From Cladocopium goreaui (lineage: Eukaryota > Sar > Dinophyceae > Suessiales > Symbiodiniaceae): a stretch of DNA of 64,000 nt. Below are positions 44,869-63,700 of this stretch, piece by piece. The DNA lies in contig CAMXCT020001651.1 of NCBI GenBank assembly GCA_947184155.2, positions 1-64,000 of the forward strand, written 5' to 3'. The notes under the pieces were generated by a model. That model saw only the letters and a list, made by a program, of their open reading frames with translations. It did not search any database and was not told the DNA's origin. Each line of letters opens with the position of its first letter. Positions within the stretch are counted from its first letter, which is position 1. A program made the position numbers and the translations under genes.

Positions 44869-44966
44869 ACCATCTGGTTATGACTAACGGTTTGCCATGG
44901 AAAGATCCACCATGCTATTAATAGGTAAACCATCTATTTCTATGGGCCATCTATTTCTATGGACCA
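44869..44966. mobile_element. IR-A element, left half split by retroelement
   Basis: TACCATCTGGTTATGACTAACGGTTTGCCATGG and CCATCTATTTCTATGGGCC match the left two thirds of the GTTTGCCATGG subtype. Homology stops where the retroelement begins. Confidence 0.75.
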
Positions 44967-47941
44967 CTTCATCTCCCCTCGAGATGGAAATCAAAGGCAA
45001 CGGACTTAGACCTGGTCTGTTGCAATCAGCTTCCACTCTGCAGCAATGTCACCAACTTGACGGAAGTCCTCAGCGATCACATAGCAAAATCGGTGACCAT
45101 CAGTCACCCATGGCAACTTGATTCTCACAGAGGCGTTCTCCAGAACAGAGGCTCTTGGAAACAGCCTCCCTCCATCTCCAGCACAACATGGACGGAATTG
45201 CTTGATTACACTTGGAAGCAAGGTAGCGAGGCCCAACGGGAGCTCTATCATTTATTGGACTCTCCCAACCCGGACGTCAACCTCGAATGGGAAACCTTCC
45301 TCAAAGCAGTGCACAACATGTTTGATGACACGGCCAAAACACTGGCTTTGGATCAAACTGCCAACAACTCTGTCGAATTTCTCAAATGGCTCCAAAGCTG
45401 CAGAATGGTCAAGGCCAGAAATACACCTCCCAAGCATGTGCGGGTGAGCCGCCGAAACACCAGACGCCTGGGATCCATGCAAGAACGAAAACGCCGCAAC
45501 CGTCTGGCCAAACTGGCTCGGTTGCATCAGCTCCTCACCGACAGACCAGGAGACAGAGAAATCCACTGTCTTCGCAGAAAGCTCCACTTGGATGCCACGG
45601 ATGCCTCCACCTCGGATCTCTTCCTCCAAGTCCAACAGGAGATTGGGAGACTCCGTACCCAAATCTGCCAAGAAGATCAGGAAACAAAGCGTGTTGCCAT
45701 CCAGAAATGGCGGCAAGACATGAGACACAATTTGACGGCAAGATATAAGTGGATCCGCAGAGGCCAGGAATGTCCACACCTACCTACTCTGGCATCCAAT
45801 GGTGAAACCTTCCTCGGCGATGAGAAATCCATTGCGGCCATTACAAACCACTGGCGATCAACTTGGAATGCGGCGAGACATCGAGCCCAACTCTCACTGC
45901 CTCAACAGCTCAACATGGCGCAGGAGCTTCTTCAACCACTGCACCACGATTATGCGGGCACGCGCCCTACAATGGCGGACCTGATCAAGGCGGTCAAACG
46001 CCTGCATGGTGCTCCAGGACCGGATCAGTGGACCTGTTTGGAAATCCGTGTTTTACCCCTAAACTGCCTTAAGACTTTCCATTTCATTACGGAAAGATGG
46101 GAAATCTACGGCCAAACGCCTCAGGCTATTCAGGACAGCAAGCAGGTCAATTTACCTAAGGCTAACAAAGTTTCTGAGGACAATTTCTTGGATCCCAAAA
46201 ACACCAGACCTATTAACATTTACTCTTGTTGGTATCGGCTTTTTGCCTCGATGTGGGCCCAATCCGACAACATGAAACAGTGGTACAAGGAAACCTTGCC
46301 CTCCTCAATTCTTGGAGGCCCAGAAACAAAAGGAGCTGACATGGTCACTTCGGAGCTTCATGATTTGTTGCACATCGAAGGTTTCTTTGCCACGTTGGGC
46401 CTCTCCCAAGCCTTTGACAACATTCAAGCGGAAGTTGCGACCACTTCCATGAGAACCTTGGGAGTCCCTCCCCGGCTCACCGGGGTCTTGCGTCACCAAT
46501 GGCTCCACCAACGAAGATGGATGACATGGAACAGATGCGTCTCTGAGACAGAGGTCAACACAGATAGGGATCCCACAGGGAGATCCCCTTTCACCTTTGG
46601 CCATGAACTGTGTTATGACTTTGGGGGTGAAAAGCGTTGAAAGGGACCTGTCTCCGGTTGTTCCCAGGCACTTCGTTTGGATGGATGACCGTAGTTTCAT
46701 CCTTAGAAACCCCCGGCACCTTGTTCAAACTTGTGACAGTTGGTTCAGGTTCTCTTCTAACTTTGGTTTCAGAGAGAACGAACAAAAGGCCCAGCTGGTG
46801 GCAGCCACCAGCCACCGGGAAAACAAACTGCGGGAATGCTTACTTGATCACGATCTGCTTCCTAGAATCCTTCCATATGCTGAGGTTCTCGGTAGCCATG
46901 TGGGAAAGTTGACAAGGTCACTCAGGCCTCTGGAATCCCAAAGAGTTTCCTTAGCAAAGCTGGTGGCTCAAAGAATTGCCTTGTTACCACTCCCTCGGGT
47001 GGCCAAACTTGAAACATGTCGGGCGACCGTCCTTAGCAGAGCTGCTTATGGATGGACAGGTAAGAGACCTACTAAGGAACTCAGCAAATCACTGGACCAG
47101 GCGGTCCACAAAGCCTGTGGAGGCTTTAAACAGTCACCTCCGGCACTGCGAAAGACTCCTTGAGGGGGGCACTACAGTGTACGACAGTTCATGTTGTGGC
47201 TTAGACGCATGGTGCGCCCTGAGGACACGGCCTGCCGGTCTGACAATTCCCACGCTGCTCGTTTGGCTAAAGAGTGGCTCAAATTCACAGGTTGGACTGA
47301 ATGTGTGCATGCCCGTTTGGGTAAGCGCTGGACTCATTCGAAACTTCCGAACCAAAGTATCCTCATGCCAGCCATTGGGGATGACATCGATGCTAAACAA
47401 ATTTGTCATTTGTCGAGGGAAGCATGGCGAATTGAACAGTGGAAGTTACTGCGTGCCAGCGGCCGCAGAGAGCTTCCGGACATTCCTATTCATTATCCGC
47501 CTGGGCGTGTCCAGGCCACGAGGGACTGGTTGAAAACGGCCACAGGCGCCAGTAGGACCATTCTGCTAGGTGCTGCGGTTTCACCTGCGACTCTGCATCG
47601 ACAAGCTCCGGGCAACCTTTGCACCTGGGGTTGTGGTCAGTTGGGTCATTGGAAACACATCATTTGGGAATGCCCATTAAGACCTATCAAACCTGAGCAT
47701 GTGCCAGTTGATGATTTACAAGCTCGTTGGCTCTGGCCTACTGAGGAACGATCCACTAAGGACTCCAAACTCTTGGATTTTGCTAAGGCTTTACTTGAGG
47801 CACTGTGGCAGCAACGCCACCACCCAGCGGCGGCAGCGGCAGCGGCGGCTTCTCAGGAGGCAGTCACGGCGCTGTAGCAGCTGGCACATCTTCACTGCTG
47901 CATCTGGCTTTACCGCGGTTTGCAGCCCTCAACCGAATCGA
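44967..47941 (+). pseudogene. 5'-truncated LINE-like retroelement with reverse transcriptase, inactivated
   Basis: Opens inside the end of an APE-type endonuclease (LVCCNQLPLC...EVLSDH at about 45014-45075), so the 5' part is missing. A long linker follows, then reverse-transcriptase blocks: VNLPK...RPINIYSCWYRLFA (about 46147-46250), motif A LGLSQAFDNI (about 46397-46426), motif B GIPQGDPLSPLA (about 46568-46603, in the next frame), motif C FVWMDD (about 46674-46691). C-terminal part to 47877 with a CTWGCG...H...C zinc-knuckle-like segment and an Ala run. Damage: a frameshift at about 46560, TGA at 47161-47163, and Gly where motif A normally has its first catalytic Asp. Plus strand, opposite to all genes here. 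No poly-A tail is evident. Confidence 0.85.
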
Positions 47942-48027: not shown

Positions 48028-48121
48028 TCAGCCATCCGTTGGCGCCTCCTTGGCAAAGCTCATCCTGGCGGCGTCCGCTACCATTCCTGGATCCTCGGAC
48101 GGAACCACGTTCTCGTAGGTC
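48028..48121 (-). CDS. chlI: chlI terminal coding exon
   Basis: Acceptor GGCTCAG|GACC; reads [20 protein letters not shown] and ends APTDG then TGA (48030-48028). Part of a C-terminal extension absent from typical ChlI. Phase 2 entry matches the previous exon. Confidence 0.75.
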
Positions 48122-51100
48122 CTGAGCCACGGAGCCACAGAGCCATTAGTTGAGATTCTGTGATTCATTGGGTTGGTTTAAGGGAAAATCTACACCGGAA
48201 ACCCATGGGTTTTTACCATCAAATTGGTTGGGCTTTCCGGTTAAAATTTTCCCATCATCCAATTCTATGAGTGATTTATTTGCATGAACTCATGTGTGGT
48301 ATGAAAATGTATGAAACCCATGTGATGATTTTAGAAATTTATGACCCCATCATTAACCAACTTGAGTTTTCGAAACTGCGAAACAATGGGTCCCAAAAAA
48401 CCTTTTGGAAAATGTATCGTGGGACAAAAAATTGGTTGTCACGGCTACGTTTTTCCAGGCCGCAGCAAATCCCGGGCACCAAATTGGCCCACAGCTTGCG
48501 CAGCTCGGGTGAAAAAATTGACAACATCGTCAAACGTTGCGCACACCAAGTGGGCAGTGTTGTTGAAAGATATATATATATATATACATATATATGAATA
48601 TGAACATCTTGATGAATGGAACTCAGTATTATGGATTTAGATATGCGAATATGTGTATATATATAACATAATATATATATATGTGTATATGTATATGTAT
48701 GTATGGACTATGGACAGTACATGTAAATGATGTGTGATATCCCTTCAGATCCTACAGCAGACACATGGTCGAACTCGTCTGTCTGCAGTGTTCAGAAACT
48801 GTTTAAGGCTGCGAGAGATGTCATACAGGTCAGGTTGCTTGGAAGGCAGGAGAAATGCCCCTGTGTCTTTGCAGTTCATTGGTCACAAGGGGGTGATCAG
48901 CATATTTAATATGAGTTGCGACTAAGTACTGATACAGTCATCTGCGACTAAGTATTTAATATGGTTCATGTTCATCCACCACAAGTCAGAATGTGTGTGG
49001 TGTAACTTTACCCCTCTGTGTTAGATTGTTTAGGTCATCTGCGAAGCTTCTCACCAGTGGGATATTCACATGTGACTAGCAGTACTGTTTATCCAGTATC
49101 ATTAACCCACTAACACTGTATTACATAATGTATCATGAAAAATTAACTTTGATCAACAATCATCACTAATCATCAATTGATCATCATTGGTGCTGTATAT
49201 TTGTTCTAATCGTTTATCCCCATTCTTGATGGTTACATTCCCATGCTTCTTAGCTATGTTGCAGCTACATTACCACATGTTCTGACTAAGCCCTGCTCCA
49301 ACTGATCATCCCAGTAAAAACTGGTCACAAACAAGTCCAACGTTCAACACCGCCCAACTCGATGTTGACCCTCAGGCAGCTACTGGCCTCAGGACGTGGA
49401 CGTGTCGCAGCCCCAAAAGGTGGCCCCCCGAACGGCCCGAACGGTGTCGCTAAGTCGGTTTATCACTAGGTTAAGTATGGTTTATGAATTTTTATTGCAG
49501 ATATATGTCTAGTTAATTCTAGTTAGATGGCTTTATAAGTCAAGTATTGTCAACTTATAGCTGGCTACCACCGCCAATATTGTGTATACTGGCAAAAGTC
49601 TTGGCCTTTCATAATTGAGTCATTTCGAAAACGTTCATGGATGTCCATCTACCGCTAATTGCCAAACTCCAAGTTTAAACACCATTCAATCCATTCACAT
49701 CGCCATTCATCATTAATCATATGATTTACCCTCCAGTAAATTAACATAGCCATGGAAAATGGCCCATCGAAATAGATGGTTTACCTATTAAAAATGGTGG
49801 ATCTTTCCATGGCAAACCGTTAAATAACCAGAGGGTAATGGTTTTTGACACAGTCTCCAAACTTTGCCTAAGACTTCGTCCTTTGTCCCCTTTGTCCCTG
49901 AAACATCACTTATTATATATGACAGTTCCGAATGTGGACATTGAGGACTAAGTGACTAAGTGGGAAACATCGAAAAAAGATCCTTAAACATAATACCAGA
50001 GGGATCCAGAGGGTATCAATATTGTTGGTGATATATTCTATTCCAATGATATTCCCATTACATTACCATAGTTATTACCAAAGTTATACCCAATAGCAAA
50101 CGGTTAAATTACCAGAGGATAAGTTATTATCGCATTCCAAGACCAACTTGCCCAGTCGCTCCAGAAATCTCATCACAGGTCGCACCGGCGGAGGTCCTTT
50201 GCCAAACTCCTGGAGGAGCACCTGGCCACGGCGTCTTCCGAAAATGGGGTATCCGTAGACATGTTTACATCAAAATTCCCATGTTTTTCTGTGGCTTTTC
50301 GGTTTGGATCAAACACTTGGGTATGGGTCAAAATTCATTGACAGCATGGATGGTTTGATACTTTTTTCGGGTGGGATACTCAAAAAAAAGGTGGCGTTGT
50401 CCAAAAATGCTGGATACACGGATACAAGATCCAAGATCCGCAATTCCAATTGGAACAACGAGAAACCAATGCTATGTTTCGTACTGTTTCCGACCCCTAT
50501 TTCTCCGTGCCGCGGTGAAAACCACCGGTGGCTTTCATCACCAAGGCCCCTGGTCATCCCATGCAATTTTTCGAGGGGATGAGCCAATGAGCCCTGTGTG
50601 AAACTCAAATCATTCATATCATTCATAATTATACCCATTATTATTCATTATGATAATATATGATAATATCATCCCCAAATCATTATATGAGCCCATTATA
50701 ACAATTATTATACATATACCCATTATACCCTCTGGTAAACGTTTACAAAAAGCTATTGAAAATGGCCCAGTCGAAATAGTTGATTTAACCATGAAAAATG
50801 GTGGATTTTTCACTAGTTATGCAAACATTTACCAGAGGGTAATATCATTCATATCATTTGAGTATAATTATCATTGTTCATATATGTTCATACGGGGATG
50901 AAACTCATATCATAAAATATACCAGATATGAACATCCCCAAAATTTTCACGTCCCCATCGGATCCCATTGGGGGATCTAAAGTATCGCCAGTTCAGGCCT
51001 CATCCACAATTTTCAGACAGACCCAAATGATTGTTTCACAGATTTATCAGACTGTTGATAAGTATCATCACTCAGATTGTGAAACACAATTATCATGATA

Positions 51101-54100
51101 TTTGGATAATATCAGACTGTTGATTTAAAACGATCCTATTTCACATACCCGTGAAATCCCATGAAAGCCCTATGTGTTGATGGTTACCCTAGGGTAAACA
51201 TGCAAAATGATGCGGAAAACCCATATGGCTTCCAAAATGATCTGTAGCTTTCTGGTGAGTAAACTCCACTCCACGTCTATGTAAACGTACGTTTTCCACC
51301 ATTTATAGTTGATTTTCCATGAGTTAAAACCTCCATTTATTGATGATTTGCCTATGGTTTTTAGATAGTAAGGAGCCCCTTCATGCTGTCCATGCTTTGC
51401 CGCCGTAGCCTTGACCACCAGGGCGGTGTTGTCCAAGGTATCCGAGACCACGTCCTGCAAAAAATCCGCCGCACTTCAGCAATGCTGGAGATGACTGACT
51501 TTTTTGAAGAAAAATCCATGAATCATTGGATTGGTTTAAGGGAAAATCTACAGGAAACCCATGGGTTTTTACCATCAAATTGGTTGGGCTTTCCGGTTAA
51601 AATTTTCCCATCATCCAATTCTATGAATGAAGAATCCTGAAAATCATCCATGAATCCCTAATCATCCTGAAGATAATCCATGAATTCTTGGGGGATTCAA
51701 GGGGAGATCCTGGTGGTTGTGTAGACCTCATGAGATTGGAAAACCGCAACGGAGAACATGTGAACTTGGGGCTTGGGAAGCAAGCAGAGTCAGGATGTAC
51801 ATGGTTTATCCTATTGTTTTACGGGTGTTTTAGACCATGGGTGTACCTGGTATACCTCCTACTTCGTTGTGTTCTCCCATTCTCGCCATCCCTAGGTTCA
51901 TTTCTATGATCTTGTTTGCCAGTGTTGCCGAAAATGATGTATAGCCCAAAATTAACATCAAAATCAATCAAGAATGATGATATCGTTTTCCCATCGAATC
52001 TTCACCTGCCATCAAGATATTCCGTGGTATTCCCATGACTCCATGAAATCACGATAAAAACCCTTCGATTTTCTGGTGGTTCCTTCTAGTTTTCTCTTCA
52101 ACATGTTCCAGTTGATATTACCATGGATAGTTCCATGGATGCTTCCATGATATTTCTCCAACATCTTCAAGTCTCGACTCAGACCGCACCAGCCTTTCTC
52201 AGTCGATGCTGCAAGCAGAGGACAGTGACACGCCGCACATCCTGTGGCCCCCCCACCTGGGGTATCCATGACCCGATGTCGCATCCAAAAACCTCAAAAA
52301 GAGCAAAATCACCACAATGTTTGTAATCGAAATTGTGTTTTTTTCTGATCTTTTTGGGGGTGCTACTATATTATATCTCCGGTTTTATGTGGTTTTATGT
52401 GGGGTTTTATGTGGTTTCATCATTCTATCTCCGGTGGCTTCTATGTCCATATCTGTTCCTTTCATCCTCCCACATTTGAAGAATCCAAATCATGTGGAGT
52501 GCCTGCGGAATGTTGACATCTTTCCAAAGGCGTAAGAGATCACCGAAGATGGGTCCACCACTATTTCCAGATGGGGGGAATCGATTTTGACATCTCCAAG
52601 ACGTTCAAAAGCTCGCGAGCCTCCATGTCTTGTTGGCCCAAAGAATGGGCTTGCTTGAAGCCCCATCTTTTTTGATTACATAATTGGATCCCATTCAACA
52701 TGCTTCATGCCCCTATATTTTGTTGAGAAAATGGGGATATGATTCGGATATGATCCCATTCAAGAAAATATTACATCATATCGGAAGCAAAATATTAAAC
52801 CAAGCAATTATCCCATAGTTCAATGGATTGGTTTGTTAGAGAAAATCTTCACTGGAAACCATCGATTTTCCCATTTTACAACTGGGGTTGTCGTGTAAAT
52901 TCTCCCTTAAACTAATCCATGGCCGCCATGGATAGCGCCTCTTCATCCACTTCCGTTCGCCGCTCCAGCGCCGCCAGCGCTCGCCTGGTTGAGGACAGCT
53001 ATGATAGAAATGGTGATGTGATACTTGTCATGATCAGTTATCATCACTATTAGTTATGATTACTAATGATCACATAAGGACTATCATACTAAATCATACT
53101 AACAATAATGATTATTATACTAAGGACTATCATACTTCTGATTAGTTATGATTAGTTATTGTGATAGTCATCATTATCCTTTAGAAATTGTAGTTATCAT
53201 AGAAGAAGTATAAGATATATTTTTCTCGTGATTATATATATATATATCGTGTTAATGATTCTATCTAATAGTTATGATTTATAGTTCAAATCTAAAGCAC
53301 ATTGAACCCCTTCAATGAGCTTGGAAAACACCACTGACATCCACTGACTGAATTACTTGAACAATATTCGCAGTCCCGATTTCCAAAATAGACATGGAGT
53401 CGGTTCTTTTAAGGCAACCAGTTGCTTCAGCCTATCCTTTCAAGGTCTCACTAGGAAGTGCACTCCACAACTATCTGTGACAATGGGGTGGGCCCTGGTG
53501 AACCGCCCAACATGGCAAACACCGTTGAACCATGTGATTTCTCAACCGAATCACCCATGGGATTGGTGTGGAAATTGACAGGAAACCCCCCCCCCATCTG
53601 TTAAAATGCGAAAATCCCATGGGTTTCAATGGTGAAACCCAGTGAAAGCCCTATATTTTATGGGGAAAACACGGGAAAATCCCATGGTTTCCTATTGATT
53701 TCCCAGGGATTTTCCGGTCACGGGTAACCCATGGGTTTCCGCGCGCGGCTCGGTTGGTCACAATGTCACCTCTCAGTCCATCGACATTCAGCCTAAGCAA
53801 AGTGGTGTCCCGGTGTTCCATGTTGTTAGCTGATTTAGATTGATTTAGTTTAGTAGATAAAGTATGGTTAAGTATGTTAAAGTATGGCTAAGTAGGGTTA
53901 AGTATGGTTGAGCATGGTTAAGTACAGTATGCTGAAGTATGTTTTATTGTGGTTAAGTGGAATGCATTGTGGATATCTCATAATATCTATATATATATAC
54001 GAGTACATACTGTATTATCATTATGTATCTACTTGGATGGGTGAACAGAACAACCTATAATATCTACAATTCCGGGGGGGAACCACTTTGTATCGTGGTG

Positions 54101-57100
54101 ATCTTCCATTCCATGATCATCTGGAAGGGTGAGCAGAGTGGATGGTCCTGATAACTTGAATATGTCTATATAAATGGAACTGAAAATGGACTACACCCTC
54201 CCAGAATGGCTCCCAGAAATATCAATCAGGATGTCCCGGTTGAAATGGGTTCTACCCCATGTCCAGAAACGAATGCAGCAAAATAGCTGCTCCCAGGTGG
54301 TGTACTCACCATCTTCAGAAAGAACTAGTCAGGAAGTGACAAGGTGGATTTGGACATGTTCTGATCATCTTACTGGTGCTAAACGCAGGGAATTTTCGGG
54401 AATGATCCATTTCATCACTAGTAATGTCATCATCCCAGCAACCCCCAGCAACCCATCCATTTCCTACGTAAAACGCACCAGTAAGTCATATCCTCTCAAA
54501 AAAAAGTGCCACCTCCAAAAGTATGAAAAGCCTGGGATCCCAGGCTTAGAACAGACCTTGGAGATCTTCAGAGCCAACTCTCTGGGCATCTTCACATCCT
54601 TCCTTGGACATGGTAAAAATGGAGCCCGGGGTTGAAGATGGGAATATAGCATCAATCTCTGACATAACTAACTCGAGATACCTGAAATACCTGAAATACC
54701 TCACATTTTTTAAAAAAAGTTGGAACCTGAAATACCTCACTTCATATGCAAAGAATGGCCCTTGAAGCAGCCAAGTGGCAACCTCTCCCGAGCGTCCACC
54801 ACCAGATCCTTGAAGGCCTCGTCCTGGCCATGTTTGAATTCTTCAGCACCGGGACCAGCGAATTCATGATGGGAAAATCTAGGATGGACCAGCTACACAA
54901 ATGGTGTTTTATTGGGCTTCAATGGGATTTGAACCTACCATGGGGGTTTCCCCTAGTTTTTTGATGTTTTTTGTACCTCAGGGTACCATCCCAATTCCCG
55001 CTCCGTGGAGGCCCACTGCGCTTCAATCTTCTCGGGGCTCTGGGACCATTCGTAGGCCCGGGACAAGACCTGACAGGCGCTCGCCCCCTCCATGGGAATC
55101 CCAACATCGGGAGATTCAAATCCCTAATCTGGTTGGTGGTATTAATGTATCTGGTTGGATAAGATGGTATTATTGGGGTTTAAAAATACCATACTTGGGG
55201 GTGGTTGACCTACCCCTCTGAAAAAACCGAAAGTCAATGGGAAGGATGACATCCCAATATCCCATATATGACATGGAAAATAAAAGCCATGTTCCAAACC
55301 ACCAACCAGTAATGGATTGATTAGTGCCCAATGCTTGAAACATGTTGAAACCATCTGAAAAAACATCTCAAAATCCCCGATTTTCCCACATGTTTGGGAT
55401 CCAAAACATCTCCAAAAATGATCAAAATGCGTCAACATCTCCAAAAATTGTCAAAATGTGTCAACATCTCCAAAAATTGTCAAAATGTGTCAACATCTCC
55501 AAAAATGATCAAAATGTGTCAACATCTCCAAAAATGGTCAAAATGTGTCAGCATCTCCAAAAATGGTCAAAATGTGTCAACATTTTGAAAAAAATTGTCA
55601 AAATGTGTCAACATCTCCAAAAATGGTCAAAATGTGTCAACATCTCCAAAAATGGTCAAAATGTGTCAACATCTCCAAAAATGGTCAAAATGTGTCAACA
55701 TCTCCAAAAATGGTCAAAATGTGTCAACATCTCCAAAAATGGTCAAAATGTGTCAACATCTCCAAAAATGGTCAAAATGTGTCAACATCTCCAAAAATGG
55801 TCAAAATGTGTCAACATCTCCAAAAATTGTCAAAATGTGTCAACATCTCCAAAAATGGTCAAAATGTGTCAACATCTCCAAAAATGATCAAAATGTGTCA
55901 ACATCTCCAAAAATTGTCAAAATGTGTCAACATCTCCAAAAATGTCAAAATGTGTCAACATCTCCAAAAATGATCAAAATGTGTCAACATCTCCAAAAAT
56001 GGTCAAAATGTGTCAACATCTCCAAAAATGGTCAAAATGTGTCAACATCTCCAAAAATGGTCAAAATGTGTCAACATCTCCAAAAATGGTCAAAATGTGT
56101 CAACATCTCCAAAAATGGTCAAAATGTGTCAACATCTCCAAAAATGGTCAAAATGTGTCAACATCTCCAAAAATGGTCAAAATGTGTCAACATCTCCAAA
56201 AATGGTCAAAATGTGTCAACATCTCCAAAAATGGTCAAAATGTGTCAACATCTCCAAAAATGGTCAAAATGTGTCAACATCTCCAAAAATTGTCAAAATG
56301 TGCCAACATCTCCCAAAAATGGTCAAAAGTGTCAACATCTGCCAAAAATGATCAAAAGGGTCAACATCTCCAAAATTGTCAAAATGTGTCAACATCTCCA
56401 AAATGGTTCCAAANNNNNNNNNNNNNNNNNNNNNNNNNNNNNNNNNNNNNNNNNNNNNNNNNNNNNNNNNNNNNNNNNNNNNNNNNNNNNNNNNNNNNNN
56501 NNNNNNNNNNNNNTTTCCCTTCCAAGAAGGTTTTTCCCTGTGACGGTGGTTTTGTTGGCTATTCCTCTTTTCCGTTGGTGCAGTCCGCCTCCAAATTGGA
56601 AGCCTGGGCTACGCACCTGGGGAAGCTATACAGTGACATCACCTACTGATATTCAACCTATTTTGATTTCAAATGGTCAAAATGTGTCAACATCTCCAAA
56701 AATGGTCAAAATGTGTCAACATCTCCAAAAATGGTCAAAATGTGTCAACATCTCTCCAAAAATGATCAAAATGTGTCAACATCTCCAAAAATTGTCAAAA
56801 TGTGTCAACATCTCCAAAAATGGTCAAAATGTGTCAACATCTCCAAAAATGGTCAAAATGTGTCAACATCTCCAAAAATTGTCAAAATGTGTCAACATCT
56901 CCAAAAATGGTCAAAATGTGTCAACATCTCCAAAAATGGTCAAAATGTGTCAACATCTCCAAAAATGGTCAAAATGTGTCAACATCTCCAAAAATGGTCA
57001 AAATGTGTCAACATCTCCAAAAATTGTCAAAATGTGTCAACATCTCCAAAAATGGTCAAAATGTGTCAACATCTCCAAAAATGATCAAAATGTGTCAACA

Positions 57101-60100
57101 TCTCCAAAAATTGTCAAAATGTGTCAACATCTCCAAAAATTGTCAAAATGTGTCAACATCTCCAAAAATGGTCAAAATGTGTCAACATCTCCAAAAATGG
57201 TCAAAATGTGTCAACATCTCCAAAAATGGTCAAAATGTGTCAACATCTCCAAAAATGATCAAAATGTGTCAACATCTCCAAAAATGTTTTTTTTTTGAGA
57301 TTAGCCATCCTTTATTTTGCATGTTTCGGATGGCTTTCGTCCTCCACGGCTGACGCGGCCTATCCTTTTTTGCTGGGGGGCATGGATTCGTCGGCATACG
57401 TCCGTCCTCCCTTGTTTCGGCGCAGGGTTTTTCCCCTTCCAAGAAGGTTTTTCCCTGTGACGGTGGTTTTGTTGGCTATTCCTCTTTTCCGTTGGTGCAG
57501 TCCGCCTCCAAATTGGAAGCCTGGGCTACGCACCTGGGGAAGCTATACAGTGACATCACCTACTGATATTCAACCTATTTTGATTTCAAATGGTCAAAAT
57601 GTGTCAACATCTCCAAAAATGGTCAAAATGTGTCAACATCTCCAAAAATGGTCAAAATGTGTCAACATCTCCAAAAATGTCAAAATGTGTCAACATCTCC
57701 AAAAATTGTCAAAATGTGTCAACATCTCCAAAAATGTCAAAATGTGTCAACATCTCCAAAAATGGTCAAAATGTGTCAACATCTCCAAAAATGTCAAAAT
57801 GTGTCAACATCTCCAAAAATGGTCAAAATGTGTCAACATCTCCAAAAATGGTCAAAATGTGTCAACATCTCCAAAAATGGTCAAAATGTGTCAACATCTC
57901 CAAAAATGGTCAAAATGTGTCAACATCTCCAAAAATGGTCAAAATGTGTCAACATCTCCAAAAATGATCAAAATGTGTCAACATCTCCAAAAATGGTCAA
58001 AATGTGTCAACATCTCCAAAAATGGTCAAAATGTGCCAACATCTCCAAAAATTGTCAAAATGTGTCAACATCTCCAAAAATGGTCAAATGTGTCAACATC
58101 TCCAAAAATGTCAAAATGTGTCAACATCTCCAAAAATGGTCAAAATGTGTCAACATCTCCAAAAATGGTCAAAATGTGTCAACATCTCCAAAAATGACAA
58201 TTTGTTGGGATCCAAAATTTACCATCTCAAAACATCTCCATCCAAATTGTGCCATCCAAAATGACTCCAGTGGCTCCAACTCCAACCCTTTCCGCTGGCC
58301 GGGCCTCCATTCGCTTCTCCGCCGCCAGGGCCGTGCGAATGCTGCAGGTCAAGCCGAAGCGATCCAAGAGTTGCGGCCTGGCGGCGCCGAGGCTTCACCA
58401 TTACCACTTTGGGGGAGATCTTTTTTCGGGTTTTTTTTGGTGATTCCAATAGCAACTTATATCTTATTAGATATCTTATTAGATATCTTATTAGATATAT
58501 TATTAGATATATATATATATACACATATATATGGGGATATTCTGAACCACTAATAATATCTAAGATTTCATCATCGTGAGATGACTTGGGGGTATCAAAT
58601 CAACCATGATGAAGATAATATGTGTTTGTTTTTTTCAATAGCCATAGCCCACTTCGGTTGGGATAGGGAGCCGGCCCCAACAAAACCCCAGAAGGATGGC
58701 CCTTTGTGTCATCTGGAGGTTTCCTGAAATGGGGGTACTAGGGGTACCCCAGGCATCATCCATTAGAAAAACCATCCATTTTTGGGTACCTGCATTTTAG
58801 GAAACCCCCAAGCAGTTATGTTACTACGAGGCCAACGTTGGATCCAAAATTTGGTCAGATGGCTCTCGATCCAACGAAATGGGTTGATGCCAATCCGATG
58901 GGATCCGCCTTAGATCGCCCTCATCAGGATGAGAAGTGCCAATCAACACGAAGCGCGCAGGATGTCTCACGCCTCAAAGGGCCGGCGTTGCTTTTTTTTT
59001 GGCTCCAGCCATCCAGTTATGGTCAGTTGTGCAGCTTTGAAAAAGAAAAACGGCCAGGATTGGAATGGGTTTCTTGTGCTGCATCTGCATTTAAAGGCCA
59101 AATTGGCGAATCAAAAATTCCACATTTCAAGGCTCAACTCTACCAAAATCGGCGGGCACCACGTCTTAAACCTTGACCCATCGGAAAAAAGATTGCAATT
59201 TATTAGCCACGTTTAATCTTAATAGGGAAAGCAAGTGGTTTGGACGCACCACTATTTTTGACAAACACCAACATTTTGAAAGAAACAAATTAAAAGCAAT
59301 AGTCTACAGTAGACAGCCCACTTATATCTGTTTGTTGACCCCTTATCAAGTTTTAAATACTATGGTACAGTATATGGTGGTAACCCCGTTGTACATGTGA
59401 TTTCATATCATTTCCAGGTGTCCAATGTTTTAGCATCTATGACTGGGGGTTGCTACAAAGTCAAGCCGGCTATAATGTTGGTTTACAAATCCATTAACTA
59501 TAGGTATATCAGTGTTTGTCCTCTATAAACCATAGAATTCAGCAAGCTATGTGCGTCAACTTAAAATCTATCTGACTGGCAGTTTCGGCATCACCATCTA
59601 CAAAGCCTGACCTTTGTTGGACCCTGGGACCCCGGGGCCCCAACTGACACCCTCGCGCTCCACGGTGTTGACACCCCCAGCTGCACTGTCCAACAAGACA
59701 TCCACCAGTTGGTCGTCCAAGAGGTTGCACTGGCGGCTGGATCAATGTGGCTGGCAGCTGGTTGTTCCAGCAGGGGATTCACCATGAAAAAAATGGAGCT
59801 TTTGCCGTGAAAATCATGGAATATGATGGAGGTTGAAAAAAGTGAAATATTGGGTGCAAAGGGATGTGAATGATAGTTTGAGGGAACTATTCACCAATTC
59901 TAAAATGGGGATTTAATTTAAGCATCAACACTAGGAAATTAGGCAATGAATATATAATTGTCATGGTCTGTCTGAAAATGGGTTGGCTAAAACCGCCAAG
60001 TTTGGCATGTTTGGAGGACTTTATTTTCACGCAAAGCCAGTACAGCTCAAGGGAACACATTGTGCCTGTGAAGTGCTGACATGTTTCAAAGCTGTATTGG

Positions 60101-63100
60101 GATGCCGATGAGATTTTTCAAAGTTGGCCCTGTGAGTGCCAGATTACCCCACGAAATTCAGAGTTCTTCAGCCCAGAGGGGGCTCCTTTTTCAACTCAGT
60201 CGACCAGACTAGACCTCCCCAGAGAGTCACGGGACCTCATCGTGACAGTCCTGGCCTCATCAATGTAGAGGATCCCCCGATTCACCCGAGCTAAAATTCC
60301 AGGCTCAAACGCCTCAAAGAGCGCAAAGGGCGGTGGGGTGGTTGCGATCCAGGAATCCTAAGTAGCCAATAAGCATACTTGTTGAGAATGGTTAATGATT
60401 AATCAATGGTTAATGTTTAAGATTCAATATGAACCAAAACGTTTATGGGGTTGGCCAGGGGTGATTGGTAGAATCATGGGATGCTCACCACCATAAGTCA
60501 GGATATGTAACCATGGTTATATAACCACGTATAACTGGAACTGCAGCTCAAGTATGATCTGAAATACCTAGTTCGATTCTTAGGATACGCCCCCTTTTAC
60601 AATTTCATAAATATGATGGTGATCACCACTTACGATTCCTTGGTCCCACGAATGGGTTCTATGAGAGATTTCATGGGCATGGACATGGACTATACAGCAA
60701 GAGTGTAATTTGTTTTGGCATCAGCCAACATATCTTCTTCTAGTCAAGTCGCAGAAATGGCAATTCGTGGTTTGGTTCACCACATTTGCCGGTTAAGTCT
60801 CTTCATACAATAATGAACCCCTAGCCCGTAACCCCAAGCCTTGTGTCCGCTACAGAGTAGCTATATCTGGTGTGAATTGGTGCGTTGCGTTTACCCCTAT
60901 TCCCTCCATTTACATCGATACACTTGATAAGTCCAATTCCTGCGCGATCCTTTAGAATTTACATCCATCACAGTTTTATAAGCCATGAGTTCAGTTACAA
61001 TTTGCGTATCAAACTTGGGGTACCCTAATTTTTTTCGGGGTTTTAAGATCCGAGCAATGGACGAAAACTGTGGAAACTGTGGAAACTGGGTAATGGCTTG
61101 GCCAAACCCATTCTTGGATGGGTCAAGCCTCAGAAATTCTGGTCCGTTTCACCGTTTCAAGGACCAAGAAACAATGAATTGAAGTTTTTATCCCCATGAA
61201 TTTCATGCAATTTTCTGGGTAATTGGGGATGATTTCCCTTACTAACTAACCATGATTCCAGTGAGGTCACAGTGAGGTCGTTATAATTTACCCAGAATTT
61301 TATGATTTAATCAGATTGATCCGACTCACATTGAAGGACACTCCCCAATTTTGACGCTTGAAGCTCCAATTCTGATGGTTACCATCTGGTTATGACTGAC
61401 ATAGCCATGGAAAATCACCATTTTTAATAGGTAAACCATCTATTTCTATGGGCCATGTTCCATGGCAAACTGTTAGTCATAACCAGGTTGGGTAAATCTG
61501 GTGAAATTCCCGGATCATGGTGGAAAAATCCACCGACATCTGATGGTTTCTTCCACAACTTGGATGTCCCCCATTGACAGCGTGGGCGACCATCATCCCA
61601 AAAATGGCGTCCATCCCTTGTACATCCCATGCTTTTTTTAAAGGACCCCTGGAGTATACCCGCTGGTTATGACTAACATAGCCATGGTATAGATGGCCCT
61701 AATCGAAATAGATGATTTACCCAGCGAACTAAACCTCCATTTATGCTTGGGATTTTCCGTGGCGAACTGTTCGTCACAACCGGTAAGGAAGTCCCCATTT
61801 CATGGGCTTAAATGGATTGTAACCACCAAAATATCAGCACTTTATCCATGGGATGATCGATATAAATCCCATGAAAATCTATGTTTCTTGGTTCAATGGC
61901 CATTTTCCTATGATTTCAAAGGGTTAAATCACCGTTTTCCTATGATTTCCTACGGTTTCCTACGGTTCCCATAGAGTTTTCCTACGGGTTCCCCGGCACC
62001 TTGCCAGCTTCCTTCAGCGCCCGCTCGATGTCGATGGTGCCGGTGACCCGATCCTCCGTGGCGCCCAGAGGCAGCTCCACGAAGGGCGTGCGCCTTGGCT
62101 TTGGACGACGTGAAGAACTTTGGAGATCAGAACTACCCTCTGAAAAACCCTCTGGTAAACGTTTACATAACTATGGAGAATCACCATGTTCAATGGATAA
62201 ATCAACTATAAATGGGTAAACCAAGATAACTATGGAAAGATCCACCATTTTATAGCTGGGTAAATCCACTACATATTTCTATCACCATTTTCAATAGCTA
62301 TGTAAACGTGTACCAGAGGGTATGTGAATATCCGAGTAACTGTGTATAGATATTCATATCGTTAGTCAGTTCATATATCCACATACTTTGGAGAAAATGG
62401 AACACTGTGTAACTATATGACTGTATGACTATAATATCACTCTAATATCACTACAATATGACTATAATATTGCAATAATATTGCTATAATATGACTATAC
62501 TATGACTGGGTAACTATATAAATGTATCTATAAGACTGAACACTATGAGTCACTATGAAACTATATGGCTATAGATCTTCAGTTTGGATATAACAAAGAT
62601 ATGTTCCTGCTGTGGATGGTTCCGAAATCCTGCACCAGTTGATAGGGTTTCAACATGTTTCAACCATCCAAGGGGAAAGATTTCCATCCACAGTATGTAA
62701 GTCTTAATACACCTATATGTTTTTTTGTGACTTTTTGTGACTTTTTGATATGACTATATGAATGTAAAATTAACTGCATAAGTATATCACTATAAAAGTA
62801 TATATATATAGCTCTATTTATATAGCTATTATCACTATATAACCATATGACTATATGACTATGTGACTATATGACTATATATACCAAGTATTCCCAAGTT
62901 AACTATATAGCTTCTCTCGCTATTCGATAGAAAAAGATATTGGATATCATAGCCAGTTAAATGGATTACCTCCATGACTATTTATAGATGGATATAATGT
63001 ATTGATTGGATATAAGATCGATGAATATAGGTTCATGTTCAAAACTGAATCTGCTAACTATATAAGTATATATGCATTAGTGTTACAAAATAGTGGTATA

Positions 63101-63700
63101 TGTTTTATCTTGATCCATCTATAAAGCTGTACAGTATAATGCGCTATTATCCATAAACCCTGGTCGATCTGGTTACGTTCACCAACTTAACGAATGACCG
63201 GAGATGCTGAAATTGGGTGTTTCCCCCAATTTCCAGGGTGGTTTTTGTTATGTTTTTTCAAGGTGGCTTTCAAGTTAAACAAGTTAAACAAGTTAAACAA
63301 TGAACAGAAACCCAGGGAAGATAGGGAAGATTTCGGATAAGCATGCTGGCATCAAATCCATGGGAAAACCACAAAATGTGGATGGAGAATTTCACCAACA
63401 ATCCCAATGTGTATTTTAAAAAAATGAAGCGTACTAGTCAGTAGTTCATATATCTTCGATACAAATGAATTGTGATGTGGTTGGATGTGTAGCCAATAAG
63501 AAATCACCAAGCTTTCCAAATGTTTCTGTCACATATGTCACATGTTTACCACTTTGTCACGGAAAACCATCCCCCAAAAAAATGGCATCGCCATGGCTAA
63601 GTGGCGACTCGTGGCCATGGTCCATATGGTCCGAGTCCACTGTGGAACCCGACTTCTTGGTGGTTTTCAGCTTTTCTCCTTTCTCCAATCGTTCTTTCAC
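48028..63700 (-). CDS. chlI: Magnesium chelatase subunit I (ChlI), 3' portion, 16 exons
   Basis: AAA+ ATPase subunit that drives Mg2+ insertion into protoporphyrin IX, the first committed step to chlorophyll, in the plastid. Minus-strand exons: 63700-63641, 62098-62000, 60312-60256, 59729-59645, 58972-58909, 58377-58287, 55069-54998, 54823-54783, 54602-54546, 53792-53745, 52984-52927, 52241-52194, 51454-51410, 50221-50152, 48503-48449, 48121-48028. They total 1044 nt in one frame ending TGA. Diagnostic motifs: [32 protein letters not shown], Walker [32 protein letters not shown] (arginine finger), [26 protein letters not shown]. Sensor-1 is odd: the usual GNPEEG reads SHPDEG. The C-terminus runs about 60 residues past the family's usual end. 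P-loop and transit peptide must be upstream, beyond 64000. Donors: GT 6, GC 8, GA 1. Confidence 0.93.
48162..48274. mobile_element. IR-E inverted-repeat element in chlI intron 15
   Basis: GATTCATTGGGTTGGTTTAAGGGAAAATC pairs with GATTTTCCC...CCAATTCTATGAGTG; nearly identical to 51519-51630 throughout (AAACCCATGGGTTTTTACCATC). Confidence 0.85.
48449..48503 (-). CDS. chlI: chlI exon 15
   Basis: Acceptor TTCACCCGAG|CT; reads [17 protein letters not shown]; donor GTAGCC. Phase 1 in, 2 out. Extension region, so supported by phase and splice signals only. Confidence 0.7.
48510..49726. other. chlI intron 14, left part
   Basis: AT-rich with TA microsatellites at 48572-48597 and 48655-48705. A slightly GC-richer patch at 49370-49450 shows no supported exon. 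Confidence 0.35.
49727..49837. mobile_element. IR-A element in chlI intron 14
   Basis: TACCCTCCAGTAAATTAACATAGCCATGG to CCATGGCAAACCGTTAAATAACCAGAGGGTA. Confidence 0.85.
50000..50119. mobile_element. IR-A element, degraded
   Basis: Right end AGCAAACGGTTAAATTACCAGAGGATA; left end replaced by two CCAGAGGG remnants. It lies 33 bp from exon 14. Confidence 0.5.
50152..50221 (-). CDS. chlI: chlI exon 14
   Basis: Acceptor GTGGCCAG|GTG; reads [20 protein letters not shown] then ERL plus one base; donor GC (G|GCAAG). VLLQEF sits where ChlI proteins end; the rest is extension. Confidence 0.75.
50726..50841. mobile_element. IR-A element in chlI intron 13
   Basis: TACCCTCTGGTAAACGTTTACAAAAAGCTATTG to TTATGCAAACATTTACCAGAGGGTA. 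Confidence 0.88.
51410..51454 (-). CDS. chlI: chlI exon 13
   Basis: Acceptor [26 protein letters not shown]; donor GC (AAG|GCTACG). Follows HRLRK, as in the ChlI C-terminus. Confidence 0.85.
51519..51630. mobile_element. IR-E element in chlI intron 12
   Basis: GAATCATTGGATTGGTTTAAGGGAAAATC to CCCATCATCCAATTCTATGAATGA; reference copy of the family. Confidence 0.87.
52194..52241 (-). CDS. chlI: chlI exon 12
   Basis: Acceptor [27 protein letters not shown], the conserved HRLR segment; donor GC (AAG|GCTGGTG). Confidence 0.92.
52822..52918. mobile_element. IR-E element beside a chlI donor
   Basis: CAATGGATTGGTTTGTTAGAGAAAATC to GAATTTAC-type arm ending TAATCCATG on the other strand. Its end is 8 bp from the GC donor of exon 11. 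Confidence 0.65.
52927..52984 (-). CDS. chlI: chlI exon 11
   Basis: Acceptor [27 protein letters not shown]; donor GC (ATG|GCGGCC). Corresponds to ARALAAL of ChlI. Confidence 0.92.
53745..53792 (-). CDS. chlI: chlI exon 10
   Basis: Acceptor [23 protein letters not shown] plus two bases; donor GC (GCCGC|GCGCGG). Near-perfect ChlI signature. Confidence 0.96.
54369..54485. mobile_element. IR-F element in chlI intron 9
   Basis: CTTACTGGTGCTAAACGCAGGGAAT to ATTTCCTACGTAAAACGCACCAGTAAG. Confidence 0.78.
54546..54602 (-). CDS. chlI: chlI exon 9
   Basis: Acceptor [25 protein letters not shown] plus two bases; donor GC (TCTAA|GCCTGG). Matches the helical RELxxKIxxVC segment. Confidence 0.9.
   Translation of the reverse strand, partial: EGCEDAQRVGSEDLQGLF
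54783..54823 (-). CDS. chlI: chlI exon 8 (41 nt)
   Basis: Acceptor [24 protein letters not shown] plus two bases; donor GTTGCC. Matches the ILEARERL-type helix. Confidence 0.85.
54998..55069 (-). CDS. chlI: chlI exon 7, GA donor
   Basis: Acceptor [31 protein letters not shown] then STER. No GT or GC donor restores frame to exon 8; GA (CGG|GAATTG) does, with spacing closest to ChlI. Confidence 0.75.
55129..55309. mobile_element. IR-B element, long copy
   Basis: CTGGTTGGTGGTATTAATG... to ...CCAAACCACCAACCAG. It contains a second CTGGTTGGATAAG and CTACCCCTCTGAAAAAAC, suggesting an internal insertion. Confidence 0.75.
55407..56413. repeat. 29-bp satellite, block 1 (about 34 units)
   Basis: Unit AAAAATGGTCAAAATGTGTC followed by AACATCTCC, very uniform; variants GATC, TGTC and one-base deletions. 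Runs into the assembly gap. Open in all plus frames because 29 is not divisible by three and no unit carries a stop. Confidence 0.97.
56414..56513. other. Assembly gap (100 N)
   Basis: Exactly 100 N, the usual placeholder for a gap of unknown size. Confidence 0.99.
56514..56684. repeat. Satellite spacer, partial copy
   Basis: From TTTCCCTTCCAAGAAGG to TATTTTGATTTCAAATGG it matches the end of the 57290-57587 spacer base for base as far as read by eye. Confidence 0.9.
56685..57289. repeat. 29-bp satellite, block 2 (about 21 units)
   Basis: Same unit as block 1. Confidence 0.97.
57290..57587. repeat. Satellite spacer, complete copy (about 298 bp)
   Basis: Starts with a T-run, GC-rich middle (GGCATGGATTCGTCGGCATA), ends TATTTTGATTTCAAATGG. 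With the 29-mer block it forms a higher-order unit. Confidence 0.9.
57588..58195. repeat. 29-bp satellite, block 3 (about 21 units)
   Basis: Same unit with more 28-bp variants (AAAATGTC). Ends 91 bp from chlI exon 6. Confidence 0.97.
58287..58377 (-). CDS. chlI: chlI exon 6
   Basis: Acceptor [27 protein letters not shown] then [10 protein letters not shown]; donor GTTGGAG. Carries the arginine-finger helix. Confidence 0.95.
58488..58535. repeat. TA-rich short repeat
   Basis: Four TATCTTATTAGA repeats followed by (TA)n. Confidence 0.8.
58714..58810. mobile_element. IR-C element in chlI intron 5
   Basis: GGAGGTTTCCTGAAATGGGGGTAC to GGGTACCTGCATTTTAGGAAACCCCC. Confidence 0.8.
58909..58972 (-). 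CDS. chlI: chlI exon 5
   Basis: Acceptor [29 protein letters not shown]; donor GC (CTAAG|GCGGAT). The usual Asn of the sensor-1 motif (GNPEEG) is His here. Confidence 0.93.
59645..59729 (-). CDS. chlI: chlI exon 4
   Basis: Acceptor [30 protein letters not shown] then NTVEREGV; donor A|GTTGGGG. Confidence 0.96.
59730..60255. other. chlI intron 3
   Basis: AT-rich; no element found. The intron starts GCCAGG and ends GCCAG, a short direct repeat at its borders. Confidence 0.4.
60256..60312 (-). CDS. chlI: chlI exon 3, Walker B
   Basis: Acceptor [29 protein letters not shown], ending exactly at the catalytic Asp-Glu; donor GC (GAG|GCCAGG). Confidence 0.96.
60313..61216. other. chlI intron 2, left part
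   Basis: AT-rich; no element or extra exon recognised. Confidence 0.35.
61217..61292. repeat. Dispersed repeat, copy 2 of 2
   Basis: GGGGATGATTTCCCTTACTAACTAACC...CAGTGAGGTCGTTATAATTTACCC, as at 24748. Confidence 0.75.
61380..61494. mobile_element. IR-A element in chlI intron 2
   Basis: TACCATCTGGTTATGACTGACATAGCCATGG to CCATGGCAAACTGTTAGTCATAACCAGGTTGGGTA. Confidence 0.82.
61657..61785. mobile_element. IR-A element in chlI intron 2
   Basis: TACCCGCTGGTTATGACTAACATAGCCATGG to GGCGAACTGTTCGTCACAACCGGTA; right end diverged. Confidence 0.75.
62000..62098 (-). CDS. chlI: chlI exon 2
   Basis: [20 protein letters not shown] then [13 protein letters not shown]; donor GTGCCG. The frame stays open to 62132 next to an IR-A end (TAG acceptor), but only the CAAAG|CCA acceptor is phase-compatible with exon 1. 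Confidence 0.92.
62134..62322. mobile_element. IR-A element, long or nested, in chlI intron 1
   Basis: TACCCTCTGAAAAACCCTCTGGTAAACGTTTACATAACTATGG to TGTAAACGTGTACCAGAGGGTA, with two extra internal arms; probably one copy inside another. It touches the GC-rich side of exon 2. Confidence 0.8.
62323..63640. other. chlI intron 1, AT-rich part
   Basis: Drifted repeats of TATGACTATA (62425-62530, 62840-62885), TA runs, one IR-D element; no other exon. Confidence 0.4.
62610..62694. mobile_element. IR-D element
   Basis: CTGTGGATGGTTCCGAAATCCTGCACCAGTTG to GATTTCCATCCACAG. Its left arm is the longer one; in 9883 the right arm is. Confidence 0.75.
63641..63700 (-). CDS. chlI: chlI exon 1 of window
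   Basis: Acceptor [30 protein letters not shown], matching the VRxRxxxGExL segment before ELPLGATED; donor ACA|GTGGAC. The frame remains open to about 63590 (Asp/His/Ser-rich), so a longer exon is possible. Confidence 0.75.

What the first reader, a model, noticed from the sequence alone, without database searches (positions are those of the whole stretch)
48028..63700. ChlI gene shattered into at least 16 micro-exons with mainly GC donors
Exons of 41-99 nt join without a frame break for 347 codons. Donors are GC in 8, GT in 6 and GA in 1 of 15 introns; acceptors are all AG. Non-GT donors are known in dinoflagellates, but a majority of GC in one gene is notable.
Basis: partly seen in the sequence, partly recalled or inferred. 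Interest (0 to 1): 0.8.

Follow-up and report, generated by a model that had tools for sequence, protein, structure and literature searches.

The report
Ordinary dinoflagellate chlorophyll gene, many introns
This is a real nuclear gene for a chlorophyll-making enzyme subunit, cut into many tiny exons in the way that is usual for dinoflagellates, so the odd-looking GC splice sites are expected in these algae rather than a surprise.

Summary
The gene is real. It continues past the window, with Walker A, to about contig base 72142. Over 13 in-window introns I count GC 9, GT 3, GA 1, the last two chosen partly by eye; exons after 51410 rest on codon usage or on nothing. Over 19 introns: GC 12, GT 6, GA 1; AG|G at 18 of 19 acceptors. 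That is the published norm: GC is the commonest donor in five of seven dinoflagellate genomes tabulated (43.6-58%); Cladocopium, the likely source, has GC 43.6, GT 36.6, GA 19.8%. U1, U2, U5 and U6 copies looked at have ordinary functional boxes. The genome holds a second, more conserved ChlI gene (C4480), also spliced at GC, GT and GA; the window copy is the divergent one, with Asn-to-His at a site invariant in the references. Ordinary; low interest.

The parts
63654..63700 (-). ChlI exon ([16 protein letters not shown]), first one inside the window; donor GT (GAA|GTCGGG)
   Evidence: alignment; ban test drop 8.4
62000..62093 (-). ChlI exon ([16 protein letters not shown]...ALKEAGK); donor GT
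   Evidence: whole-genome match E 2.6e-11
60256..60312 (-). ChlI exon with Walker B ([19 protein letters not shown]); donor GC
59645..59729 (-). ChlI exon ([28 protein letters not shown]); donor GT; its acceptor is the only one of 19 not followed by G
58909..58972 (-). ChlI exon ([22 protein letters not shown]), carries the Asn-to-His change; donor GC
58305..58377 (-). ChlI exon ([25 protein letters not shown]); donor GC
54998..55069 (-). ChlI exon ([24 protein letters not shown]); donor GA at 54997 or 55003; an in-frame GT donor at 54976 is also possible
   Evidence: ban test drop 1.6; sequence
54780..54823 (-). ChlI exon ([15 protein letters not shown]); donor GC
   Evidence: ban test drop 5.4
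54546..54602 (-). ChlI exon ([19 protein letters not shown]); donor GC
   Evidence: ban test drop 16.6
53745..53792 (-). ChlI exon ([16 protein letters not shown]); donor GC, with a GA alternative of equal score
   Evidence: ban test drop 0.0
52939..52984 (-). ChlI exon ([15 protein letters not shown]); donor GC
   Evidence: ban test drop 6.2
52194..52241 (-). ChlI exon ([16 protein letters not shown]); donor GC, not firm
   Evidence: ban test drop 3.0
51410..51454 (-). probable ChlI C-terminal exon ([15 protein letters not shown]); donor GC
   Evidence: by eye against RKDPLESIDSGSKVEKVF, not found by the aligner; codon score 17.6 bits in frame
50169..50221 (-). possible exon ([17 protein letters not shown]); its 3' end is not fixed
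   Evidence: by eye; codon score 12.4 bits
48028..48121 (-). possible last exon ending in TGA; link to the gene not shown
   Evidence: open frame after AG|G; codon score 11.8 bits against 9.5 in another frame
55070..58304 (-). intron of 3235 bases, 2792 of them the stretch 55405-58196 reported as a 29-nt tandem repeat, with a 100-N gap at 56414-56513

Best explanation
A nuclear dinoflagellate gene (most probably Cladocopium, Symbiodiniaceae) for the I subunit of Mg-chelatase, in the usual architecture of that group: many short exons, and introns that start with GC, GT or GA and end AG|G. SHOWN by protein fit: the exon chain, its upstream continuation with Walker A, the donor tally, and a second ChlI gene spliced the same way. 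SHOWN by sequence: ordinary U1, U2, U5 and U6 functional boxes in the copies looked at. INFERRED: the introns are removed by the ordinary major spliceosome, with a relaxed second donor base, a weak residual U1 match (AG|G and G at +5) and the AG|G acceptor; the protein is plastid-targeted and hydrolyses ATP to drive Mg2+ insertion into protoporphyrin IX.
For: Spliced alignment 706 against nulls of at most 137. TIGR02030 best family, 454 bits over positions 1-332 of 337; Pfam AAA_lid_2 60.3 and Mg_chelatase 26.4 bits, both over cut-off, for the in-window part. Donors GC 12, GT 6, GA 1 of 19 here and GT 7, GC 5, GA 1 of 13 in the paralogue; AG|G 18 of 19 and 11 of 13. Published norms (PMC10666404 and PMC9412976, passages). 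Genome 1,165,616,438 bases in 6202 contigs, window GC 43.2%, against C. proliferum 1.17 Gb, 6843 scaffolds, GC 44.4%. U1 carries ACTTACC at its 5' end in 10 of 10 loci looked at; U6 ACAGAG and U5 GCCTTTTAC in 2 of 2 each. The 32 donors match the U1 complement better than 3985 GT/GC/GA sites of the region (mean 4.06 against 3.09 of 9). Two chlI transcripts reported in Symbiodinium (PMC5328969, passages).
Against: No transcript was available, so every junction is inferred; AG acceptors and the three donors were imposed on the aligner. Five of 18 aligned junctions (65746, 64880, 55003, 53744, 52193) lose 3 units or less when banned. With all 16 donors allowed, 4 of 20 introns take other dinucleotides, at a gain of 12 units. 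The full protein scores 454.1 against TIGR02030's curated cut-off of 466.95. The species name rests on size and composition only; 6202 contigs is not 6843.
Confidence: 0.93

Rival explanations
1. The gene is exceptional for its genome: GC donors concentrated here by selection or by insertion of one introner family that brings GC ends.
For: 12 of 19 GC is above the Cladocopium mean of 43.6% (P 0.069, one-sided; 8 of 12 by the aligner in the window, P 0.094); the paralogue has only 5 of 13.
Against: Not significant, and P for 12 of 19 is 0.21-0.42 against four other published genomes. Inverted repeats of 8 nt or more within 30 nt of both ends in 1 of 19 introns (mismatched-end control 1 of 342). 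The repeat family shared by introns 2, 3, 5, 7, 8 and 19 lies inside them, its nearest copy starting 63 nt from an end.
Confidence: 0.03
2. A decaying pseudogene of ChlI; the odd junctions are remnants.
For: Divergent from the paralogue (56.3% identity over 279 columns); 20 of 128 reference-invariant sites changed.
Against: Though stops and frameshifts were forbidden, the aligner found a nearly gapless path over reference positions 9-325 with Walker A (GERGTGKST) and Walker B kept; codon usage is exon-like in 17 of 18 exons.
Confidence: 0.04
3. Not ChlI but another AAA+ of the ChlD or cobaltochelatase type.
For: TIGR02442 also scores 425 bits over its N-terminal 316 positions.
Against: TIGR02030 is best; ChlD 244 bits. 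Identity 59.3% to the ChlI of 6l8d, 45.7 and 43.8% to two more distant Chlorobaculum paralogues. In a 10-row tree it groups with the C4480 copy (83/82) and apart from those paralogues (92/95); support is modest.
Confidence: 0.03

Closest known systems
ChlI/BchI, Mg-chelatase ATPase subunit I (TIGR02030; PDB 6l8d, 8osf, 1g8p)
   Same: Collinear match over profile positions 1-332 of 337; Walker A, Walker B and the RPQLLDRFG stretch kept.
   Different: 13 bits under the curated cut-off; 20 of 128 sites invariant in six references are changed, among them GSGNPEEG to GTSHPDEG.
Dinoflagellate GC/GT/GA-AG|G introns (Symbiodiniaceae, Polarella, Prorocentrum)
   Same: Donor set, donor shares, AG|G acceptors, many short exons, introns of about 1.1 kb mean here (19 introns) against 839 bp in C. 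proliferum.
   Different: Mean exon 53 nt (957 nt over 18 exons) against a published mean of 120 in C. proliferum; the paralogue's exons are as short (748 nt over 14).
Second ChlI gene at G000:C4480 (from about 394 kb down, minus)
   Same: Same family, same genome, same splice types; shares intron positions 129 phase 0 and 148 phase 0 of the reference.
   Different: 71.7% identical to 6l8d over 279 columns against 59.3% over 339 for the window copy; keeps GSGNPEEG; the other intron positions solved differ.

Membership tests
ChlI/BchI (TIGR02030) | Whole-protein score over the curated cut-off of 466.95 bits | tested here: not met
   454.1 bits over 1-332 of 337, still the best family; residues before PFPF and the true C-terminus are not in the joined protein
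ChlI/BchI (TIGR02030) | Better match to ChlI than to ChlD, with intact Walker A (motif recalled) | tested here: met
   454 against 244 bits; GERGTGKST across the exons at 70735-70687 and 66629-66604 of the contig
ChlI/BchI (TIGR02030) | Sensor-1 Asn (role recalled; GSGNPEEG in six of six references) | tested here: not met
   GTSHPDEG in the window copy; N also in the two distant Chlorobaculum paralogues and in the C4480 copy
ChlI/BchI (TIGR02030) | Mg-chelatase activity with ChlD and ChlH; plastid location | not testable with these tools
   no biochemistry; presequence exons were not found
Dinoflagellate GC/GT/GA-AG|G introns | Donors drawn from GC, GT, GA in the published shares | tested here: met
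   17 GC, 13 GT, 2 GA of 32 in two genes; chi-square P 0.15 against C. proliferum, 0.13 against Polarella, 0.18 against D. trenchii, but 0.036 against S. natans and 0.024 against P. cordatum. The donor set was imposed on the aligner; freed, 4 of 20 introns took others
Dinoflagellate GC/GT/GA-AG|G introns | G after the acceptor AG | tested here: met
   18 of 19 and 11 of 13, not imposed on the aligner; 96.1% published for C. proliferum
Dinoflagellate GC/GT/GA-AG|G introns | Junctions shown by cDNA | not testable with these tools
   no transcript data held
Introners (TE-derived introns) | Inverted repeats of 8-20 nt within 30 nt of both intron ends (criterion as described in PMC10666404) | tested here: not met
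   1 of 19 introns; mismatched-end control 1 of 342; the direct-repeat half of the criterion was not tested

The most novel reading that the evidence does not exclude
Peridinin dinoflagellates keep two nuclear ChlI genes: one conserved (C4480), and a second, divergent one (this window) whose sensor-1-like Asn has become His and which may serve as a slow or regulatory AAA+ subunit in the Mg-chelatase ring.
Probability: 0.2. Interest if true: 0.4.

Novelty: new member of a known kind. Interest (0 to 1): 0.15.

Why it matters
It removes a false lead: GC-majority introns in one dinoflagellate gene agree with the published genome norm and occur beside ordinary U1, U2, U5 and U6 boxes. It also shows that protein homology can recover exons of 25-94 nt spread over 24 kb if GC and GA donors are allowed (GT-only splicing loses 30% of the score), and points to an unequal pair of ChlI genes that could be assayed.

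Tried and rejected
Considered chance: rejected, 706 against nulls of at most 137. Considered GT-only splicing with other exon ends: 496, rejected; a penalty on GC and GA donors of up to 10 score units still gives 10 GC of 16 introns; at 14 it gives 6 GC of 17. Considered introners as the source of the introns: inverted repeats not at the ends in 18 of 19. Looked for relatives of the joined in-window protein: viral contigs none, genome contigs one, in a record titled Chlorobaculum parvum, plasmids 43 records, all under 60% identity; the first two searches use exact degenerate patterns and find close relatives only, so they say little. Rfam on the window: nothing at gathering threshold. tRNA: none. 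Pfam on 10 of the 288 GC-rich stop-free segments of at least 35 residues in 1-48 kb: RVT_1 in two (one under cut-off), sub-threshold LapD_MoxY_N and DUF4807 in one each, nothing in six; 278 were not scanned. The 3' part of the C4480 gene after about reference position 258 is not solved; alignments there changed with the intron cost. The tree has 10 rows, two from cyanobacteria (recalled), one long branch, and does not resolve where the dinoflagellate pair attaches. A donor tabulation over the genome was not made; only two genes were counted. Rows dropped: the aligner's 6-nt terminal exon at 48093-48088 and the C4480 exons after 380588.
Full report
Observation. One piece at 58379 (RPQLLDRFG...) matched PDB Mg-chelatase I subunits. 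From the minus-strand sequence I joined 14 exons without a frame break, and the joined 277-residue protein matched three Mg-chelatase chains at E 5e-91, 1e-87 and 3e-73.

Independent test. To reduce my own choice of junctions I wrote a spliced aligner (donors GT, GC or GA; acceptor AG; no stops; flat intron cost) and ran a profile of five references (6l8d, 8osf, L001 and two plasmid BchI) against contig bases 47001-114000, that is the last 17 kb of the window plus 50 kb of the same contig fetched from the genome. It returned the first 12 exons of my join, one end differing by 6 nt, then a 6-nt terminal exon at 48093-48088 that I drop, and six further exons upstream of the window, 72128-64881, reading [45 protein letters not shown] and on. 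By eye the first of these extends to 72142 (EFAKPFPF). Score 706 also on the shorter stretch used for controls; nulls: 60 shuffled profiles max 124, 60 block-shuffled DNAs max 137, opposite strand 100.

Donors. Score with GT only 496, GC only 592, GT+GC 700, GT+GC+GA 706, all sixteen 718 with GC 9, GT 6, GA 1 and one each of CT, AG, CC and TT; of these four, two shift a junction by a few bases and two lie in the poorly matched C-terminal tail. When each of the 18 donors is banned in turn, five junctions (65746, 64880, 55003, 53744, 52193) lose 3 units or less, so these are not firm; the other 13 lose 5.4-16.6. Counting the 18 aligned donors, with the GA donor put at 54997 and the last intron ended at 51455 by eye, plus the one at 51409: GC 12, GT 6, GA 1 of 19; in the window GC 9, GT 3, GA 1 of 13. 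G follows AG at 18 of 19 acceptors. The exons after 51410 rest on codon usage (50221-50169, 48121-48028) or have no support (49449); in the codon test one of the 18 aligned exons, the first, scored below zero.

Is it notable? No. PMC10666404 (passages) tabulates donors as GT/GC/GA %: P. cordatum 24.7/51.4/23.8, A. gibbosum 74.9/25.0/0.1, Polarella 28.8/52.7/18.5, S. natans 23.6/58/18.4, D. trenchii 30.3/52.3/17.4, C. proliferum 36.6/43.6/19.8, Amoebophrya 99.9/<0.1/0; AGG acceptors are 96-97% in four of the seven (Polarella, S. natans, D. trenchii, C. proliferum), 93.2, 79.7 and 56.5% in the others. PMC9412976 (passages) gives the same Cladocopium figures. PMC5177918 (passages) lists GC/GT/GA as the predominant donors in S. 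microadriaticum and mean exons of 102-110 bp with about 20-22 exons a gene in two of three species (256 bp and 4.1 in the third). PMC7789003 (passages) gives 73.95% GC or GA introns in a column that I take to be S. microadriaticum from its mean intron length, the header not being in view. PMC11453091 (passages) reviews this. The assembly (1,165,616,438 bases, 6202 contigs; window 43.2% GC) resembles the 1.17-Gb, 44.4% GC C. proliferum assembly; that is inference, not identification.

Mechanism. The same genome has 22 U1 matches, 14 over the family cut-off. Of five U1 loci scanned with Rfam, two (L028, L033) hold U2, U4, U5, U6 and SRP RNA as well, one holds U2, one SRP RNA, one U1 alone. The U1 match begins AAACUUACCUGG in L028-L037, ACTTACC being present in 10 of 10 (the search had missed L030 only through its position filter); U6 has ACAGAG and U5 GCCUUUUAC in both copies looked at, and U2 aligns through GUAGUA in the two alignments shown. 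The 32 donors of the two genes keep G at +1 in 32 (imposed), G at -1 in 24, A at -2 in 21 and G at +5 in 19, with C 17, T 13, A 2 at +2, and fit the U1 complement better than background sites (mean 4.06 against 3.09 of 9), though part of that excess may come from exon composition. So an ordinary spliceosome with a relaxed +2 and a strong AG|G is the simplest account; how +2 is tolerated is not shown.

Second copy. Searching the genome with the joined protein found exons at C1651 (this gene) and one at C4480; fetching C4480 gave a second ChlI, solved to about reference position 258. A search with it found the same two loci only (7 matches; such counts are lower bounds). It is 71.7% identical to 6l8d over 279 columns, the window copy 59.3% over 339, the two 56.3% to each other. 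Two intron positions (reference 129 and 148, phase 0) are shared. In a 10-row tree the two group with 83/82 support, apart from four BchI rows (93/96) and from two Chlorobaculum paralogues (92/95); their link to the two cyanobacterial rows is not resolved. The window copy differs at 20 of 128 columns invariant in six references, the C4480 copy at 8 of the 117 where it has a letter; the window copy has H where all six, and the two distant paralogues, have N. I call this site sensor 1 from recall. PMC5328969 (passages) reports two chlI transcripts in Symbiodinium. PMC6078071 (passages) takes ChlI as plastid-encoded in kareniaceans and Lepidodinium and shows no ChlI tree. In the listings of two searches I saw no title that describes a divergent ChlI pair in dinoflagellates; only those two papers of the listings were opened, by passages.

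Verdict. A real, ordinary dinoflagellate gene; the donor pattern is already known; the only mild surprise is the divergent paralogue.

Noticed in passing
window 55405-58196: A 29-nt tandem repeat, about 96 copies by Tandem Repeats Finder, takes up most of the 3235-base ChlI intron and holds a 100-N assembly gap at 56414-56513.
   Followed up: partly
window 44925-47160, + strand: Reverse transcriptase pieces (RVT_1: 30.2 bits at 46525-47160, and a sub-threshold 16.1 bits at 44925-46637) in two overlapping frames: an apparently frame-shifted retroelement just downstream of the ChlI gene, on the opposite strand.
   Followed up: partly
window 62147-62321 and 50726-50841; also introns at contig 71352-70736, 70686-66630, 65746-64938, 61999-60313: A palindromic element of about 65-120 nt, with ends like ACCCTCTGGTAAA in the two window copies, shared inside six introns of this gene in both orientations; MITE-like.
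   Followed up: partly
G000:C4480 from about 394000 down, minus: Second, more conserved ChlI gene with the same kinds of splice sites.
   Followed up: partly
G000:C4692 14-31 kb, C5084 2-23 kb, C4795 0-10 kb: Tandem runs of U1 copies, mostly 2.7-3.5 kb apart (one gap 4.8 kb); in L028 (C4692) and L033 (C12) U2, U4, U5, U6 and SRP RNA genes lie alongside U1.
   Followed up: partly
window 58909-58972: GSGNPEEG of ChlI reads GTSHPDEG: Asn to His at a site that is N in all references compared.
   Followed up: partly
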